From Cyanobium usitatum str. Tous (GTDB taxonomy: Bacteria > Cyanobacteriota > Cyanobacteriia > PCC-6307 > Cyanobiaceae), in assembly GCF_003011885.1 (NCBI RefSeq), contig NZ_PXXO01000007.1:62001-126000 (forward strand): a stretch of DNA of 64,000 bases. Direction: 5' to 3'. Position 1 is the stretch's first letter. Each line of letters starts with the position of its first letter. The notes under the pieces are model-generated. The model was not told the DNA's origin, searched no databases, and saw only the letters and a program-made list of their open reading frames with translations. The position numbers were made by a program, and so were the translations under genes. Below are positions 20,396 to 48,546 of this stretch, piece by piece.

Positions 20396-20738
20396 ACACA
20401 AGGCACTGATGGAGAGTACATTGAGGTGTGAGTTAGTTAGTTAGTGCGCTGATGGCAATCAGCACATCAGATGGCAGCAGCGGCCTCGGCCTCGATTAAG
20501 AACTGCAGGCCCTGGTGCGCCAGTTCAGGGATCAGTTCGCCGGAGGTGCCGCTACCAAGCAGTTGCGCCAGCTCAGTCACAAACTGGGCCACCCATTCCC
20601 CCGCAGGGGCCCTGAGCCCAGGAAGTTACACCACTTGGCGGGCCACCCCCCAATCAGACAAGCGAAAGACCAATGAGACCAACTTGGCAACAGAAGAAGG
20701 CTGGCTACGCTTGCGAAGCATTTATAATTAAAAAAAAT
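20396..20738. other. Non-coding stretch with microrepeat and possible gene remnant
   Basis: About 340 bases without a convincing gene. It holds a four-base tandem repeat (AGTT repeated around 20431-20445) and a short hairpin GCTGAT/ATCAGC at 20448-20463. There is also a minus-strand open stretch (20468-20625) with protein-like composition (EWVAQFVTELAQLLGSG) but no good start, which may be the tail of a decayed gene. The last 40 bases are very AT-rich and probably hold the promoter of the YadA-like gene. Confidence 0.35.
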
Positions 20739-23339
20739 ATGAAGCTTTCCGCAAGAATTGCCTTTCTTTCGCTTCTACATGGCGCATCCTGCATTGCAGT
20801 GGCAGACCAGGCCTTTGGACAATCTCGGATTTACGGGCCCGTCACGAATGTTGAGAATCCAAACAGCTTCATTATTTACCAACAACCCAGTGGGTCACTC
20901 AATCCCAATGCAACGGCGGAGGTAGCCGATGCAAGGGGAGACTATGCAATGGCTATCGGCGCTGGGGCGACCGCTCATGCAATTGAAGCTCTTGCTATTG
21001 GACATCAAACTGAAGCAAGAACGACGCCTTCCGCGCCTACAGTACCAGCGGATGTGGCGGGCAAAGCAATAGCTATCGGGGCGAGAACAGCAGCCTATGA
21101 TACTGGAATTGCAATTGGCGTCTCTTCAGTTGCTGGCGGAGGAGAGGATTTAATACAGTATAGAACCTCTGCAATCGCAATTGGCGTTCAGACTAGCGCA
21201 CGAACAACCGAGTCCATCGCCATAGGCACATTCGCCAGTGTTACTGAACAGAAAGCTCTCAAAGAAAACGCCGATAATTCGATCGCGATTGGACGTTCTG
21301 CTACAATTTCGGGTTCCCAAAACTCGGTTGCTATCGGTCCCGCTGCGACTGTCCTTGGCAACTCCCCTAGTTCCATCGCATTGGGATTCGGGGCCCTCGT
21401 TCGAAAGGGGAATGAGTCAGGCATTGCAATAGGAACTGATGCAATTGCCTTGAGTGGCGAATCAGCGATAGCCATAGGTAAGAATTCCAGTAGTGAAGGC
21501 TTAGGGTCAACTGCAATTGGCTTTCTTTCAAAGGCAGAAAATGGGAGCCTAGCCATGGGAACGTTGGCTGTAGCTGACGGCAAGGCTTCAATAGCCCTGG
21601 GGGAATTCTCTCTCGCCACAGGCGGCCAAGGAAGCATAGCGATTGGCGAGGGGGCTAATGCAAGAAATAGAAATGCCACAGCTATTGGACGCAACTCTTT
21701 ATCGACTTTCTTAAATTCAACAGCACTAGGCGCCGGTGCCATCACCACCCGCAACAATCAGGTTGTAATCGGCACATCTCTAGAGACCGTCACAGCGCCA
21801 AGTGTTGCAGGCATTGGCAACCAATTCTTATTTGCCACTGCAGATGGCACTCTCAATCGCTATACAGGCGCCACAACCATCGGCAGTGATTTGCTGATCA
21901 GTGGCAGTCAGGCCATCGGTGGCAACCTCACGGTAGGTGGAGATGTTGTTTTCAACAACTACAAAAATACAAATCCGGGCAGTGGTACAACCTTCCTCTC
22001 AACCGATGCCAACGGCAAAGTCGCTTTAGCCGCCATCCCCAACGGCACCACCTTTTGCACCCTAGTAGGCGCCAATTCATCCTGCTATGGCCCCAATGCT
22101 GAGGCCAAAGGTGCCTTTGACACTGCCATTGGAGCGAACAGCAGAGCAGATGCAGCACTCGGCTCTACAGCCCTCGGAGCCGAAACCAATGCCTCTGGAA
22201 ATGGGTCTACCGCCATTGGCGTCCTCGCCAAATCCCAGGGCGAAGGCTCCCTCGCCGTTGGTTTCGCTGCTAACTCCACAGCCGAAGATGGTATCGCCAT
22301 TGGCTCCAATGCCCTGGCCAATGGCTTCAATGCCTTTGCCTTCGGCACGGGCGCTGTGGCCAATGGCCGAAACGTCACCGCCATTGGTTTCGGTGCACGT
22401 GCTGAAGGCTTCAATACCAATTCCCTCGCGCTCGGCACTGGTTCGCTCGCCAGCGGGACGGATGTGACTGCTCTTGGTGCCGGAGCCACGGCAACAGGAG
22501 TACGGGCCACCGCCATCGGTGCCGGTGCCATCACCACCCGCAACAATCAGGTTGTGATCGGCACACAGCAAGATGATGTCACCATGCCAGGCCTCTCCGG
22601 CTCGGGCACTGACTTGGTGGCAGCCAACAATGACGGCACCCTGCAACGCTCATCCGTCTCGTTGCAACAGGTCGATCAAGCGGTCAACACCACCATTCCC
22701 AAGCTGGAATCGGCAGTTAGCGGCCTTGGCCAAGCCGTCGAATCGGTTGGTGCCATCGCCTCCGCCATGTCAGCCGTTCCGCAGGTTTCTCTCATGGAAG
22801 ACGAGCCCATGCGCTGCGGCGTGGGCACGGGTGGCTATGGATCCGAGTATGCGATTTCTGCCGGTTGTGCAGTTCGCATCGCCGACCGCCTGCACCTCAA
22901 CGGCGCGCTTGCTTACGCACCCTCCGTCAACTATCAGTACGGGTCAACACCGTCTGTGGCTGGTCGCCTCGGCTTCTCCTTCCCCCTAGGTCGCATCGCC
23001 AAGCCCTCTAGCAAACCAACAGCCGAGGCTTCCAAAGAACTTTCCAATGTTCAAGGAACCATTCAAAAGATTCAAGCAGAAGTCAAATCCCGCGACAACC
23101 AAATCGGCATCCTCAAAACTCAGCTCGACAAGCTGCTCAAGGCTCAACACTCTGAAACGAGCACACCCAGCAGCAAGGCAACGACAGAGCTGATCGCAAC
23201 ATTCATGAGCAGAATTGAACAGCTTGAAAATCGCCTAGCCGAACAAGAACTTATTTCCCAACGTGCCATGGAACAGCTCAAATCACTTGTAGGCAGCGCC
23301 CCTCTAGGGATGGGGGCCATCAGCAAAGTAAACCGCTGA
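20739..23339 (+). CDS. YadA-like trimeric autotransporter-type surface protein with C-terminal coiled-coil extension
   Basis: An 866-residue protein. The signal peptide starts MKLSARIAFLSLLHG and cleaves near FGQ. Two blocks of YadA head repeats of the SIAIGxxA type follow (residues about 60-345 and 450-610), each ending in GAITTRNNQVVIGT. A neck/coiled-coil region (about 620-680) leads to a YadA-anchor-like segment (VGAIASAMSAVPQVS to LGFSFPLG, about 680-750). Unlike classical trimeric autotransporters it does not stop there: about 110 residues of predicted coiled coil follow. ATG 20739 is chosen for the signal peptide. It is probably an adhesin or surface layer component. Confidence 0.8.
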   Translation: MKLSARIAFLSLLHGASCIAVADQAFGQSRIYGPVTNVENPNSFIIYQQPSGSLNPNATAEVADARGDYAMAIGAGATAHAIEALAIGHQTEARTTPSAPTVPADVAGKAIAIGARTAAYDTGIAIGVSSVAGGGEDLIQYRTSAIAIGVQTSARTTESIAIGTFASVTEQKALKENADNSIAIGRSATISGSQNSVAIGPAATVLGNSPSSIALGFGALVRKGNESGIAIGTDAIALSGESAIAIGKNSSSEGLGSTAIGFLSKAENGSLAMGTLAVADGKASIALGEFSLATGGQGSIAIGEGANARNRNATAIGRNSLSTFLNSTALGAGAITTRNNQVVIGTSLETVTAPSVAGIGNQFLFATADGTLNRYTGATTIGSDLLISGSQAIGGNLTVGGDVVFNNYKNTNPGSGTTFLSTDANGKVALAAIPNGTTFCTLVGANSSCYGPNAEAKGAFDTAIGANSRADAALGSTALGAETNASGNGSTAIGVLAKSQGEGSLAVGFAANSTAEDGIAIGSNALANGFNAFAFGTGAVANGRNVTAIGFGARAEGFNTNSLALGTGSLASGTDVTALGAGATATGVRATAIGAGAITTRNNQVVIGTQQDDVTMPGLSGSGTDLVAANNDGTLQRSSVSLQQVDQAVNTTIPKLESAVSGLGQAVESVGAIASAMSAVPQVSLMEDEPMRCGVGTGGYGSEYAISAGCAVRIADRLHLNGALAYAPSVNYQYGSTPSVAGRLGFSFPLGRIAKPSSKPTAEASKELSNVQGTIQKIQAEVKSRDNQIGILKTQLDKLLKAQHSETSTPSSKATTELIATFMSRIEQLENRLAEQELISQRAMEQLKSLVGSAPLGMGAISKVNR

Positions 23340-23387: not shown

Positions 23388-23726
23388 ATGAATCACGCCT
23401 TTCTCCTAGTCGCTACACTTTTAGGCTCTGCAATCACAAGCCTCGTGGCGTTTACTCCAGGCCACGCACAAAGCAATCCTGCGAATGCGCAGCCAACCAA
23501 ACAATTCAGCGATGGATTTATCAAAGGCTGCCTCCAAAGCAAGACAGTTGACGTCAAGAACCTGGCCAAGTACTGCACATGCATGGCCAGGAGCTATGAA
23601 ACTCGCTACGATGTCGCAACCCTGTCGGCCATTGCTCAACTGTCCGGCAATGTTGGCCCGCAGGGCCCGGCCTTGGTGAATCTGATGATGGCTCCAGAAG
23701 CAAGGGCTTGCTCTAACAAGAGCTGA
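23388..23726 (+). CDS. Small secreted Cys-containing protein, hypothetical
   Basis: A 112-residue protein with a signal peptide (hydrophobic core LLVATLLGSAITSLVAF, cleavage near HAQ). The mature domain of about 80 residues has four Cys (GCLQSK, YCTCMA, ACSNKS) that could form two disulfides. It lies 48 bases after the YadA-like gene in the same direction, so it may be co-expressed. A periplasmic helper role is only a guess. No family recognised. Confidence 0.6.
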   Translation: MNHAFLLVATLLGSAITSLVAFTPGHAQSNPANAQPTKQFSDGFIKGCLQSKTVDVKNLAKYCTCMARSYETRYDVATLSAIAQLSGNVGPQGPALVNLMMAPEARACSNKS

Positions 23727-43317: not shown

Positions 43318-44931
43318 TCAGAAGCGGAACTGGGTTTGAATCACTCCACCCCAAAGATCTTTGTCATTCACCTGGTTGGAACTGTTGGTGATGTAGAAGA
43401 GCCCTGGAGTGATTGAGATGTTGTCAGTTACCTGGTACTTGTAGAAGAGCTCAATAGAGAGAGGATCATCTATGCCTGTTCCAGCACTGGGGTTCTGACC
43501 GAGGGCAATGCCGGCGGAATTGCCCTTAGCGAAGGCGTCATCCCACTGAAGCGCCACATACCAGGATTGGGAATCGTCGGCCCAGCTGCTGGCGGCGGCG
43601 GGGCTGCCAGAACCACTGATGTCCGTGAAGCCGTAGCCGACACTGATCGAAGGCATGATTCCCGTTTCGACGGGCTGCCAGTAGCCAGCGATCGAGAAAC
43701 TGTTGGAGTCTTGGCTTCCAACAAGGCTTTTATTGGCCGTCCCATTGGCATTGATCGTGCGGGTGCCAAAGGTGCCGTTGCGATAGGCCACCGCCGCCCC
43801 CCAGTTGGTGCCCTTGTAGCCAAACTGGGCGGTGGTGTTGAGGCTGCCGTCGCTGTCGAAGATCCCCTCGTTGGAGATTTCACCGTCCTGGGCGATGAAG
43901 TTGAGCGAGGCGTTCCAGAAGCCCTGGCCCTTGGCCACCTTCTGCTTCCAGACGGCACCAAAACCCTGACCCGTCACTTTGTTGTAGACGCCGGGTGTGC
44001 CAGCGACGGCAAAGAAATCGATCAGCTGGGAGCGGTAGGCGGTGGGGATGAAGGCGAGAATTTCAGTGTTGCGCACCAGGGCACCGGCGGTAAGCGTGAA
44101 TTGCTTGCCCACCGGGAACTGGTAATAGAGGCGATCGATCGACAACGTATCGATGCCACCAACGCCTGATGCTCCCGCATTAGTGCTGGAGGCCTTGTCC
44201 AACTTGAACAGACTGTCTCCAGCGTTGAAGGGATTGAAGGCCGTGAAATTACCCGAGCGCAGGCGGGTTCTGAGCAGGTCCTTGCCGGTGAAGCTGGTAT
44301 CAAGATTCAGGCGCAGGTCATAATTGAAGGTAGTGCGATCCTGCCTGCCAACAGTAACGGGAGGAGTTCCAACCCTCGTGTCCGAGTTGTAGTCGGGTAC
44401 GCCACCCAGGATGAAGTTCACCTCGCCCTTGAGCTTGGTGGTGGTGGAAAACTGCTGGGCCTCCAATGTGCCCACCTTGGCCTCAAGTCCGTCGACGCGG
44501 CCCTTCAGCACCGCTAGTTCTTTCTTGAATTCATCCATCAACCTCTGCAGTTCGTCGGTCACTTCGGTGACACGGTCGAGGCAGGCATTCAAAAGGGCTG
44601 CTGCCTCGTAGCGGGTCATGGCCTGGCCACCCTTGTAGGTGCCGTTGGGATAGCCGGCCACGCAGCCGTACTTTTCCACCAAGTTGGTCAGTGCTTGGTA
44701 AGCCCAGTCGGTTGGCCTTACTTCGGAAAATTGGTTGACGCTGGTGACCTGGTTGCGCGAGCGCCAAGCCTTGAGCTCGTCAATTTCTTGTTGCTCCATG
44801 TAGTCATTGATTGCCTCCCTGCCATTCAGCGACGAGATTTCATTGGCAAAGGCGGTGTCTGGGGCGGCCAAGGCTGGCAAAACTACGCCAAAAATTGCAG
44901 GGGCCAGCAATAGGCGATGGAACTGATTCAT
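43318..44931 (-). CDS. somA: SLH-domain carbohydrate-selective-type porin (SomA/OprB-like)
   Basis: About 537 residues. It has a signal peptide ending AFA, then an SLH domain (SEVRPTDWAYQALTNLVEKY, CVAGYPNGT, AMTRYEAAALLNACLD). A coiled coil (VTEVTDELQRLMDEFKKEL) and an OprB-type beta barrel ending in QFRF follow. The SLH domain anchors the porin to the peptidoglycan-linked polymer of cyanobacteria. ATG 44931 is chosen for the signal peptide. It is paralogous to the porin at 47065. The gene symbol is by family only. Confidence 0.88.
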   Translation of the reverse strand: MNQFHRLLLAPAIFGVVLPALAAPDTAFANEISSLNGREAINDYMEQQEIDELKAWRSRNQVTSVNQFSEVRPTDWAYQALTNLVEKYGCVAGYPNGTYKGGQAMTRYEAAALLNACLDRVTEVTDELQRLMDEFKKELAVLKGRVDGLEAKVGTLEAQQFSTTTKLKGEVNFILGGVPDYNSDTRVGTPPVTVGRQDRTTFNYDLRLNLDTSFTGKDLLRTRLRSGNFTAFNPFNAGDSLFKLDKASSTNAGASGVGGIDTLSIDRLYYQFPVGKQFTLTAGALVRNTEILAFIPTAYRSQLIDFFAVAGTPGVYNKVTGQGFGAVWKQKVAKGQGFWNASLNFIAQDGEISNEGIFDSDGSLNTTAQFGYKGTNWGAAVAYRNGTFGTRTINANGTANKSLVGSQDSNSFSIAGYWQPVETGIMPSISVGYGFTDISGSGSPAAASSWADDSQSWYVALQWDDAFAKGNSAGIALGQNPSAGTGIDDPLSIELFYKYQVTDNISITPGLFYITNSSNQVNDKDLWGGVIQTQFRF

Positions 44932-47064: not shown

Positions 47065-48546
47065 TCAGAACCGGAAGCTGGTTTTGATCAGGGCACCGAA
47101 TTGGTTGGCCCCATCCCCACTCCCTCCAGGATTGTTGAGAAAGAAGATCGCCGGGGTCACGGAGATGGCGTCGGTGACCTGCCACTGGTACCACCACTCC
47201 CAAGCCCACACGCCGGATTCGCTGGCAGCCCCATTGCGGGTGGCGGTTGCAAAGGCGGGTTGGCCCACTCCCATGCCAAAGCTGTTGCCCTCAGCCAGCA
47301 CATCGCTCCATTGCAGGCCCACCATCCATGACTGGCTGGTGCGCAGGTCTGAGCCGGAGCTGCCGTTGACGCCGTAACCAGCGCTGATCGAGGGCAGCCA
47401 GCCACTCTCGGCGGGCTGCCAGAAGCCGCTGATGCCAAAGGCATTGGTGTTGACGCCGTTCTCCTCGATCTGGGTGGTGATGAACGGGGTGGCCCCGGGC
47501 ACACCCACACCGGCCTCGACATATGAATAGAGCGCGGCGATGCCCCAGTTCTCCTGGCCGTAGCCCAGCTGCACGCTGCTGGTGCCTGCTGAGCTGCTGC
47601 TGAACAGGCCCTGGGCGGAATCGGCACCATTGCCGGCCACGTAGTTAGCGCTCACGCTCCAGCCGTTCTGTTGCCACCAGAGGCCCAGGCCTGGGCCGAG
47701 GTTTTTGTTGTAGGCCAGCGGTGCACCGTTGAGGGTGAGGACGTTGAGGATGGTGTCGCTGGGGTAGACGCTGGGCCAGAGGGCGAGCATGTCTTCCTGG
47801 CCCACCCGGCCGCCGAGGGTGGCAGTGAACTGGCCGCCGATCGGAGACTGCCCAAGCGGGAACTGATAAAAGATCTTGTCGATGCCCACCACATCGGGGC
47901 CACCCTCTTCCTGGAAGGCGATCTCCAGGGTGGAGAGGCCGCCGCCGAAGGCATTGCGATCGCCATCGAAGTTGCCGGCCCGCAGCACCGTGCGCAGCAG
48001 ATCCTTGCCGCTGAAGCTGGTGTCGAGGTTGAGCTGCAGGTCGTAGTTGAACGTGACCTGCTCACCGGCAGGATTGTTGCTCACTCCGCCCACCACGAAG
48101 CTGGCCAGGCCGGAGAGCTTGGTGGTGGTCGAGAACTGGCTGGCCTCGATTTCGCCCGCTTTTGCTTCGAGGCCATCGACGCGGCCCTTGAGCACGGCCA
48201 GTTCCTGCGCAAACTCGGCCATCAGCCGCTTGAGCGTGTCGGTCACTTCAGTGACGCGATCAAGACAGGCGTTGAGCAGGGCGGCGGCCTCAAAGCGGGT
48301 CATGGCCTGCCCACCACTGAAGGTGCCGTTGGGGTAGCCGGCGACGCAGCCGTATTTCTCCACCAGGTTGGTCAGCGCCTGATAGGCCCAGTCGGTGGGG
48401 CGCAGATCAGAGAACTGGCTGATGCCGGTATTGAGGTCGGCGGGCTCGAATTCAACGGCAGCTGCGGTTACCGGTGCCAGTAATCCAGCAGCAGTTGCTG
48501 CAATCAGCAGGATTGGGCGAATTTTCACGGCTGCGAAGCGGGTCAT
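47065..48546 (-). CDS. somB: SLH-domain porin (SomB/OprB-like), preceded by a Zur-box-like site
   Basis: A 493-residue protein with signal peptide (RPILLIAATAAGLLAP, cleavage near AAA). The SLH domain (SDLRPTDWAYQALTNLVEKY), coiled coil and OprB barrel end in KTSFRF. It is shorter than the paralog at 43318 by about 45 residues, mainly in the barrel. A Zur-consensus-like site lies 22-36 bases upstream of the start codon, so zinc limitation probably raises its synthesis. It would then admit zinc to the periplasm. Confidence 0.88.
   Translation of the reverse strand: MTRFAAVKIRPILLIAATAAGLLAPVTAAAVEFEPADLNTGISQFSDLRPTDWAYQALTNLVEKYGCVAGYPNGTFSGGQAMTRFEAAALLNACLDRVTEVTDTLKRLMAEFAQELAVLKGRVDGLEAKAGEIEASQFSTTTKLSGLASFVVGGVSNNPAGEQVTFNYDLQLNLDTSFSGKDLLRTVLRAGNFDGDRNAFGGGLSTLEIAFQEEGGPDVVGIDKIFYQFPLGQSPIGGQFTATLGGRVGQEDMLALWPSVYPSDTILNVLTLNGAPLAYNKNLGPGLGLWWQQNGWSVSANYVAGNGADSAQGLFSSSSAGTSSVQLGYGQENWGIAALYSYVEAGVGVPGATPFITTQIEENGVNTNAFGISGFWQPAESGWLPSISAGYGVNGSSGSDLRTSQSWMVGLQWSDVLAEGNSFGMGVGQPAFATATRNGAASESGVWAWEWWYQWQVTDAISVTPAIFFLNNPGGSGDGANQFGALIKTSFRF

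What the first reader, a model, noticed from the sequence alone, without database searches (positions are those of the whole stretch)
20739..23339. YadA-like protein whose anchor is followed by a long coiled-coil tail
Trimeric autotransporters normally end with the anchor strands. Here the anchor-like segment (ending LGFSFPLG) is followed by about 110 residues of heptad-rich sequence. The tail would sit in the periplasm if the anchor inserts normally, perhaps binding peptidoglycan, or the protein may use a different export route.
Basis: partly seen in the sequence, partly recalled or inferred. Interest (0 to 1): 0.6.

Follow-up and report, generated by a model that had tools for sequence, protein, structure and literature searches.

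The report
Cyanobacterial trimeric adhesin with periplasmic coiled-coil tail
A surface adhesin of small Synechococcus/Prochlorococcus-type cyanobacteria carries, after its outer-membrane anchor, an extra coiled-coil tail that probably hangs in the periplasm as a three-stranded rod; the same layout was already described in Veillonella and fusobacteria, but here it proves to be the rule for a whole family of picocyanobacteria.

Summary
Observation confirmed. Window 20739-23339 encodes an 866-aa type Vc trimeric autotransporter: signal peptide, YadA heads, stalk helix, four-strand YadA anchor ending RLGFSFPL-G, then 115 in-frame residues predicted as two helices. It is not a frameshift. Of 87 distinct anchors read, almost all from the same family (Prochlorococcus/Synechococcus/Cyanobium relatives), 83 have such a tail (39-165 aa). 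Anchors read from other cyanobacterial families end at the last strand with an aromatic residue (one ends FD). Tails look like parallel trimeric coiled coils: 53 of 62 carry the RhxxhE trimer motif (about 2 expected), and length differences between related tails are 7, 14 or 21 residues (144 of 155 pairs; 19 of 22 non-overlapping pairs). The internal beta-signal is kept, so normal BAM insertion with a periplasmic tail is most likely. Peptidoglycan binding is untested; no known binding domain is present. The architecture is already published for Veillonella, other Negativicutes, Synergistetes and Fusobacteria (Bechon 2020), so this is a new member of a known kind. New here: near-universality in picocyanobacteria, heptad-step lengths, tails exchanged between anchor lineages, an invariant C-x16-C in the barrel, and a conserved secreted four-cysteine neighbour (23388-23726).

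The parts
20739..20822 (+). signal peptide MKLSARIAFLSLLHGASCIAVADQAFGQ (start chosen over upstream in-frame ATG 20673; cleavage site by eye)
   Evidence: sequence
20925..22592 (+). YadA-head (Hep_Hag) repeats, two blocks separated by a beta-rich spacer (approximate borders)
   Evidence: PF05658, 12 stretches, E 5e-42; BpaC, EibD and YadA heads match in PDB
22662..22775 (+). stalk helix that should thread the barrel pore
   Evidence: AlphaFold2 H4-41 of the 228-residue model
22800..22982 (+). YadA_anchor, four strands; invariant Cys codons at 22815 and 22866 (C-x16-C)
   Evidence: PF03895 E 3e-8; four strands; Foldseek top hits are YadA 2lme and Hia 2gr7; C-x16-C in 85 of 87 anchors
22965..22988 (+). 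internal beta-signal RLGFSFPL (polar-x-G-x-x-hydrophobic-x-hydrophobic), followed by G and the tail
   Evidence: pattern found in 62 of 62 tailed anchors
22992..23336 (+). post-anchor tail, 115 aa
   Evidence: dN/dS about 0.17 against G006, dS near saturation
23022..23153 (+). tail helix 1
   Evidence: 3.5-residue periodicity
23175..23291 (+). tail helix 2; lacks 21 residues (three heptads) present in G006 and G323
23211..23228 (+). RhxxhE trimerisation motif RIEQLE
23388..23726 (+). adjacent gene, 112-aa secreted four-cysteine protein; candidate partner of these adhesins
   Evidence: conserved beside the adhesin gene in related genomes

Best explanation
The gene encodes a type Vc trimeric autotransporter adhesin. 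Three chains build a 12-strand outer-membrane barrel; heads and stalk go to the cell surface. The fourth strand ends on the periplasmic side with an internal beta-signal, and each chain continues by a short linker into a helical tail; the three tails join on the axis into a parallel trimeric coiled coil reaching into the periplasm (roughly 6 nm per helix in the window protein, assuming 0.15 nm per residue). Shown here: the architecture, its conservation in register, the trimer motif, the kept beta-signal. Inferred: the trimer itself, the periplasmic place, and the function, which I think most likely is mechanical: a folded trimeric plug below the barrel that stabilises the trimer, resists pull-out and reaches toward the peptidoglycan or a periplasmic partner, doing in one chain what the separate protein TpgA does for AtaA.
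For: Anchor and topology. Tail on 83 of 87 distinct anchors, tail-less in the other cyanobacterial families read. RhxxhE in 53 of 62 tails, shuffles 1.7-2.1 on average, at most 7. Indels of 7/14/21 residues in 144 of 155 single-gap pairs and in 19 of 22 non-overlapping pairs, as expected if coiled-coil register is kept. Beta-signal in 62 of 62 tailed anchors. A profile of anchor plus tail matches Fusobacterium CbpF over anchor and tail (9gh4, E 5.5e-7), and recombinant CbpF (mature protein S24-K479, so with its tail) plus a C-terminal StrepII tag was purified from E. coli membranes (PMC12012533), so a C-terminal extension need not block insertion. The own genome has one Omp85, no OmpA-type domain and four SLH matches. 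TpgA binding roughly doubled the simulated extraction force of the AtaA barrel, even without peptidoglycan coupling (PMC13082670).
Against: No trimer could be modelled; the monomer model has modest confidence. Tails without RhxxhE exist (9 of 62). Four tail-less relatives, one in a genome that also has a tailed protein (G323), show that the tail is not needed for every such adhesin. Heptad-step indels could partly come from recombination between 21-nt repeats. Nothing tests mechanical function, and tail ends differ between groups.
Confidence: 0.6

Rival explanations
1. The tail is a dedicated peptidoglycan (or wall-polymer) tether: its end binds the sacculus and fixes the adhesin to it, as SLH or OmpA domains do in some Negativicutes and fusobacterial trimeric autotransporters.
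For: Position and reach fit; sister architectures carry SLH or OmpA domains after the anchor (PMC7549365); the own genome lacks OmpA-type domains; many Prochlorococcus-type tails share an end peptide such as KDLATIKLP or KDLAVYKLK.
Against: No known peptidoglycan-binding domain; tail ends differ between groups; the last 15 residues of the window tail are predicted disordered.
Confidence: 0.25
2. The tail is mainly an assembly device: it trimerises the chains in the periplasm before or during BAM insertion, and has no role afterwards.
For: Trimer motif and register conservation; tails are exchanged between anchor lineages, as expected for a generic module.
Against: Tail-less relatives with the same kind of anchor exist in the same family; lengths of up to 165 residues are more than trimer nucleation needs.
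Confidence: 0.3
3. The tail is a chance C-terminal extension (lost stop codon or frameshift) without function.
For: The tail is less conserved than the anchor within lineages.
Against: Present in frame in 83 of 87 distinct anchors, dN/dS about 0.17, motif and heptad conservation.
Confidence: 0.03
4. The anchor does not insert as a normal barrel and the protein takes another export route, leaving the tail elsewhere.
For: The C-terminus is not the usual aromatic residue of an outer-membrane protein.
Against: Internal beta-signal in all 62 tailed anchors, YadA/Hia topology, signal peptide and one Omp85 present, tagged CbpF with a tail was recovered from E. coli membranes.
Confidence: 0.05

Closest known systems
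Veillonella parvula trimeric autotransporters (VtaA and others) with coiled-coil or SLH domain after the YadA anchor (Bechon et al. 2020, PMC7549365)
   Same: YadA anchor not at the C-terminus but followed by a coiled coil; function of the coil stated as unknown
   Different: Cyanobacteria are mentioned there only as having PF03895; no SLH in the window protein; picocyanobacterial anchors carry C-x16-C; part of them has a secreted four-cysteine neighbour
Fusobacterium nucleatum CbpF (PDB 9gh4/9gh5)
   Same: The anchor-plus-tail profile aligns over anchor and tail (E 5.5e-7); LGK junction after the last strand; one RhxxhE site (RVRNLE) visible in the aligned tail
   Different: Short tail (roughly 50 residues); anchor and tail not resolved in the published map; human receptor-binding passenger
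YadA / Hia (canonical type Vc)
   Same: Signal peptide, heads, stalk helix, four-strand anchor; best Foldseek matches 2lme and 2gr7
   Different: Canonical proteins end at the last strand; here 115 residues follow
AtaA-TpgA of Acinetobacter (PMC13082670)
   Same: Something in the periplasm reinforces a trimeric autotransporter anchor
   Different: TpgA is a separate peptidoglycan-binding protein; here the extension is part of the same chain; the own genome has no OmpA-type domain
OmpM of Veillonella parvula (PMC10628300)
   Same: Trimeric outer-membrane protein with a periplasmic stalk, in a diderm terrabacterium
   Different: Stalk is N-terminal to a 16-strand porin barrel and carries an SLH domain that binds peptidoglycan

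Membership tests
Trimeric autotransporter adhesin (type Vc) | YadA_anchor domain with four strands per chain | tested here: met
   PF03895 33.9 bits over the cut-off of 22.7; four strands; Foldseek hits YadA and Hia anchors (E 1e-3 to 6e-3)
Trimeric autotransporter adhesin (type Vc) | signal peptide and YadA-type head/stalk passenger | tested here: met
   signal peptide by eye; PF05658 E 5e-42
Trimeric autotransporter adhesin (type Vc) | homotrimer with 12-strand barrel in the outer membrane | not testable with these tools
   only monomer prediction is available
Trimeric autotransporter adhesin (type Vc) | chain ends at the last strand with an aromatic C-terminal residue (usual, not strictly defining) | tested here: not met
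   115 residues follow; Veillonella and Fusobacterium members also break it (PMC7549365)
Trimeric autotransporter with post-anchor coiled coil (Veillonella type) | YadA anchor followed by a coiled-coil C-terminal domain | tested here: met
Trimeric autotransporter with post-anchor SLH or OmpA domain | SLH or OmpA domain after the anchor | tested here: not met
   no such Pfam hit in the protein
Peptidoglycan-tethered outer-membrane protein | binds peptidoglycan or its secondary polymer | not testable with these tools
   needs a sacculus pull-down

The most novel reading that the evidence does not exclude
The tail and the neighbouring secreted four-cysteine protein form a dedicated picocyanobacterial adhesin-anchoring module: an exchangeable trimeric periplasmic rod whose length is tuned in heptads to the wall geometry of each lineage, with a partner protein that assembles or locks the disulfide-bearing barrel.
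Probability: 0.15. Interest if true: 0.65.

Novelty: new member of a known kind. Interest (0 to 1): 0.42.

Why it matters
Post-anchor coiled coils of trimeric autotransporters were reported in 2020 with unknown function and in a few phyla. The present set shows them as the rule in a family that includes Prochlorococcus, with lengths varying in steps of seven residues and tails moving between anchor lineages. That makes questions testable about how surface adhesins are held in an outer membrane without OmpA/Pal-type tethers, and it supplies a conserved neighbour gene as a candidate assembly or anchoring factor.

Tried and rejected
Frameshift or fusion of two genes: rejected, in-frame tail on 83 of 87 distinct anchors. 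Known domain in the tail: none significant in Pfam or NCBIfam and no significant PDB match of the last strand plus tail. Phage origin: two viral-contig scans gave no relative. The count of length changes on the anchor tree (22 changes, 3 out of phase) is not used as an event count, because tails are evidently exchanged between anchor lineages and the tree rests on 92 columns. Fold of the partner protein: no confident match (Foldseek best E 1.8; VIA best Z 6.4 at 4.0 A over 76 residues to a helical bundle, which may be only a common arrangement). An alignment call with wrong coordinates failed. The AtaA-TpgA structure paper (PMC12523085) is not held.

Full report
Observation. The ORF at window 20673-23339 (+) encodes 888 residues from the first ATG; the better start is ATG 20739 (866 residues), which gives a signal peptide. 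Pfam finds YadA_head repeats (12 stretches, E 5e-42) and YadA_anchor at residues 710-770 (E 3e-8) and nothing significant in the tail. PDB matches of the head region are BpaC, EibD and YadA. The genome (2.5 Mb, 25 contigs) has just this one YadA anchor. After ...AGRLGFSFPLG come 115 residues to the stop codon.

Is it a frameshift or chance? YadA_anchor was sought in 400 genomes of the same family (50 positive) and 386 of the phylum (19 positive); the C-terminal parts were read. Together with 33 loci of a named-genome scan (nearly all Prochlorococcus, Synechococcus or Cyanobium, plus contigs of MAGs labelled SAR116 or Synechococcaceae) this gave 87 distinct complete-ended anchors: 83 carry a tail of 39-165 residues and four none. 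The set includes a few broken or truncated genes. One of the four tail-less anchors (L060) is from another family. A further divergent family member, L023, is also tail-less. In the other cyanobacterial families the anchors read end at the last strand in F or W, or FD in one case (L050-L052, L056-L058, L060, L062, L064). So the tail is the rule in this family and absent in the sampled rest of the phylum. Within the window's own genus only two of the 16 genomes searched have the adhesin at all. Against G006 of the same genus the tail is 61% identical with dN/dS near 0.17, with dS near saturation so the ratio is rough.

What the tail is. The AlphaFold2 monomer model (22 sequences, mean pLDDT 68, pTM 0.35) gives a stalk helix, four strands, a linker, helices of 44 and 39 residues and a disordered end. 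Foldseek puts the YadA and Hia anchors first (E 1e-3 to 6e-3, probability 1.00). Hydrophobic periodicity of the two tail segments is 3.48 and 3.52 (p 0.014 and 0.004; the segments were chosen by eye). The RhxxhE motif, a known determinant of parallel trimeric coiled coils (own knowledge; the motif name also appears in papers found), is in 53 of 62 tails against 1.7 in full shuffles and 2.1 in shuffles that keep the hydrophobic pattern; related sequences inflate this count. In short tails the motif starts mostly at residue 33, 40, 47 or 54 after the anchor. Alignable pairs of tails that differ by one internal gap show gaps of 7, 14 or 21 in 144 of 155 cases. In 22 pairs in which no tail is used twice, 19 gaps are multiples of seven. 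The window tail itself lacks 21 residues of helix 2 present in G006 and G323. Register of a continuous coiled coil is thus kept; recombination between 21-nt repeats may contribute.

Topology. The last strand keeps the pattern polar-x-G-x-x-hydrophobic-x-hydrophobic in all 62 tailed anchors (RLGFSFPL, RAGFVWKL, KAGFVFKL...); two of the tail-less ones were caught by the same pattern at the chain end (RLGLFFEF, RLGVFWQF), and in the other two the script reported an earlier match while their ends read RLGAFWQF. In known anchors the fourth strand ends at the periplasmic face, so the tail should be periplasmic (established knowledge of YadA and Hia). The genome has one Omp85, four SLH matches, two of them inside this window, and no OmpA domain, so a TpgA- or Pal-like partner with an OmpA domain is not available.

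Relation to known systems. Bechon et al. 2020 (PMC7549365) reported that all Veillonella trimeric autotransporters, and some of other Negativicutes, Synergistetes and Fusobacteria, have a coiled-coil, SLH or OmpA domain after the YadA anchor, and that the function of the coil is unknown. Cyanobacteria appear there only as a phylum with PF03895; their supplement could not be read, so cyanobacterial tails may be listed in it. The profile of anchor plus tail matches CbpF of Fusobacterium nucleatum over both parts (E 5.5e-7); a profile-profile comparison covered only the anchor. Recombinant CbpF with its tail and a C-terminal tag was extracted from E. coli membranes (PMC12012533). So the architecture is known and this is a new member, in a phylum where I found no description of it.

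Modularity. Two anchor lineages of Prochlorococcus type differ strongly (40% identity) but their tails are as similar between lineages (47%) as within them (49-50%), whereas anchors within a lineage are 80-83% identical. Tails therefore appear to be exchanged between genes. This also means that changes counted on the anchor tree are not independent indel events.

A neighbour gene. 48 bp after the stop codon starts a gene (23388-23726) for a 112-residue secreted protein with four invariant cysteines, without a Pfam, NCBIfam or PDB relative. In the 400 genomes it occurs in 21, of which 18 have a YadA anchor (50 of 400 do; hypergeometric P 3e-15, related genomes not corrected for). In 15 of these genomes it lies close downstream on the same strand as the anchor; G171 is also same-strand, and in G249 and at the second locus of G323 it is convergent; in G226 it is about 14 kb away. 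It accompanies long-tailed and tail-less anchors but was not found with the short-tailed Prochlorococcus class, so it is not a tail-specific partner. Its predicted fold is all-helical without a confident match.

Mechanism. Most likely the tail is a periplasmic trimeric rod that stabilises the trimer and resists extraction, perhaps touching the peptidoglycan. Steered simulations show that a periplasmic binder alone roughly doubles the force needed to extract the AtaA barrel (PMC13082670). Architecture and register conservation are shown; trimer, place and function are inferred.

Noticed in passing
window 23388-23726 (+): 112-aa secreted protein with four invariant cysteines, conserved beside the trimeric autotransporter gene in many Cyanobiaceae-type genomes and beside tail-less ones; no known family; candidate assembly or anchoring partner.
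   Followed up: partly
window 22815 and 22866 (codons); anchors of the loci: C-x16-C in 85 of 87 anchors, placed symmetrically about the presumed first hairpin turn, so possibly a cross-strand disulfide in the barrel; absent from the f32 and f35 anchors read.
   Followed up: partly
L082, L045, L077, L033 (Prochlorococcus AG-363 and relatives): A group of tails ends in a hydrophobic stretch such as NLSNLFSTMRSFLISSN, unlike the KDLAVYKLK type ends; could bind a membrane or a partner.
   Followed up: no
G006 C1 about 518844-528275 (L003-L020, L142): Same-genus homologue in a 3232-aa open frame against 866 aa here, with the same anchor, tail and neighbour gene: passenger length varies about fourfold.
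   Followed up: no
L114 and L129 (NZIT01000086.1, labelled SAR116 cluster MAG): Cyanobacteria-type tailed anchor (52% identical) on a contig binned as an alphaproteobacterium; probably a binning error.
   Followed up: no
G150, G226, G240: Neighbour-gene family member without a YadA anchor close by; possible relic, or an independent role.
   Followed up: partly
window about 44599-44730 and 48283-48414 (-): Two SLH-domain proteins, probably porins of the cyanobacterial outer-membrane tether type, in the same window.
   Followed up: no
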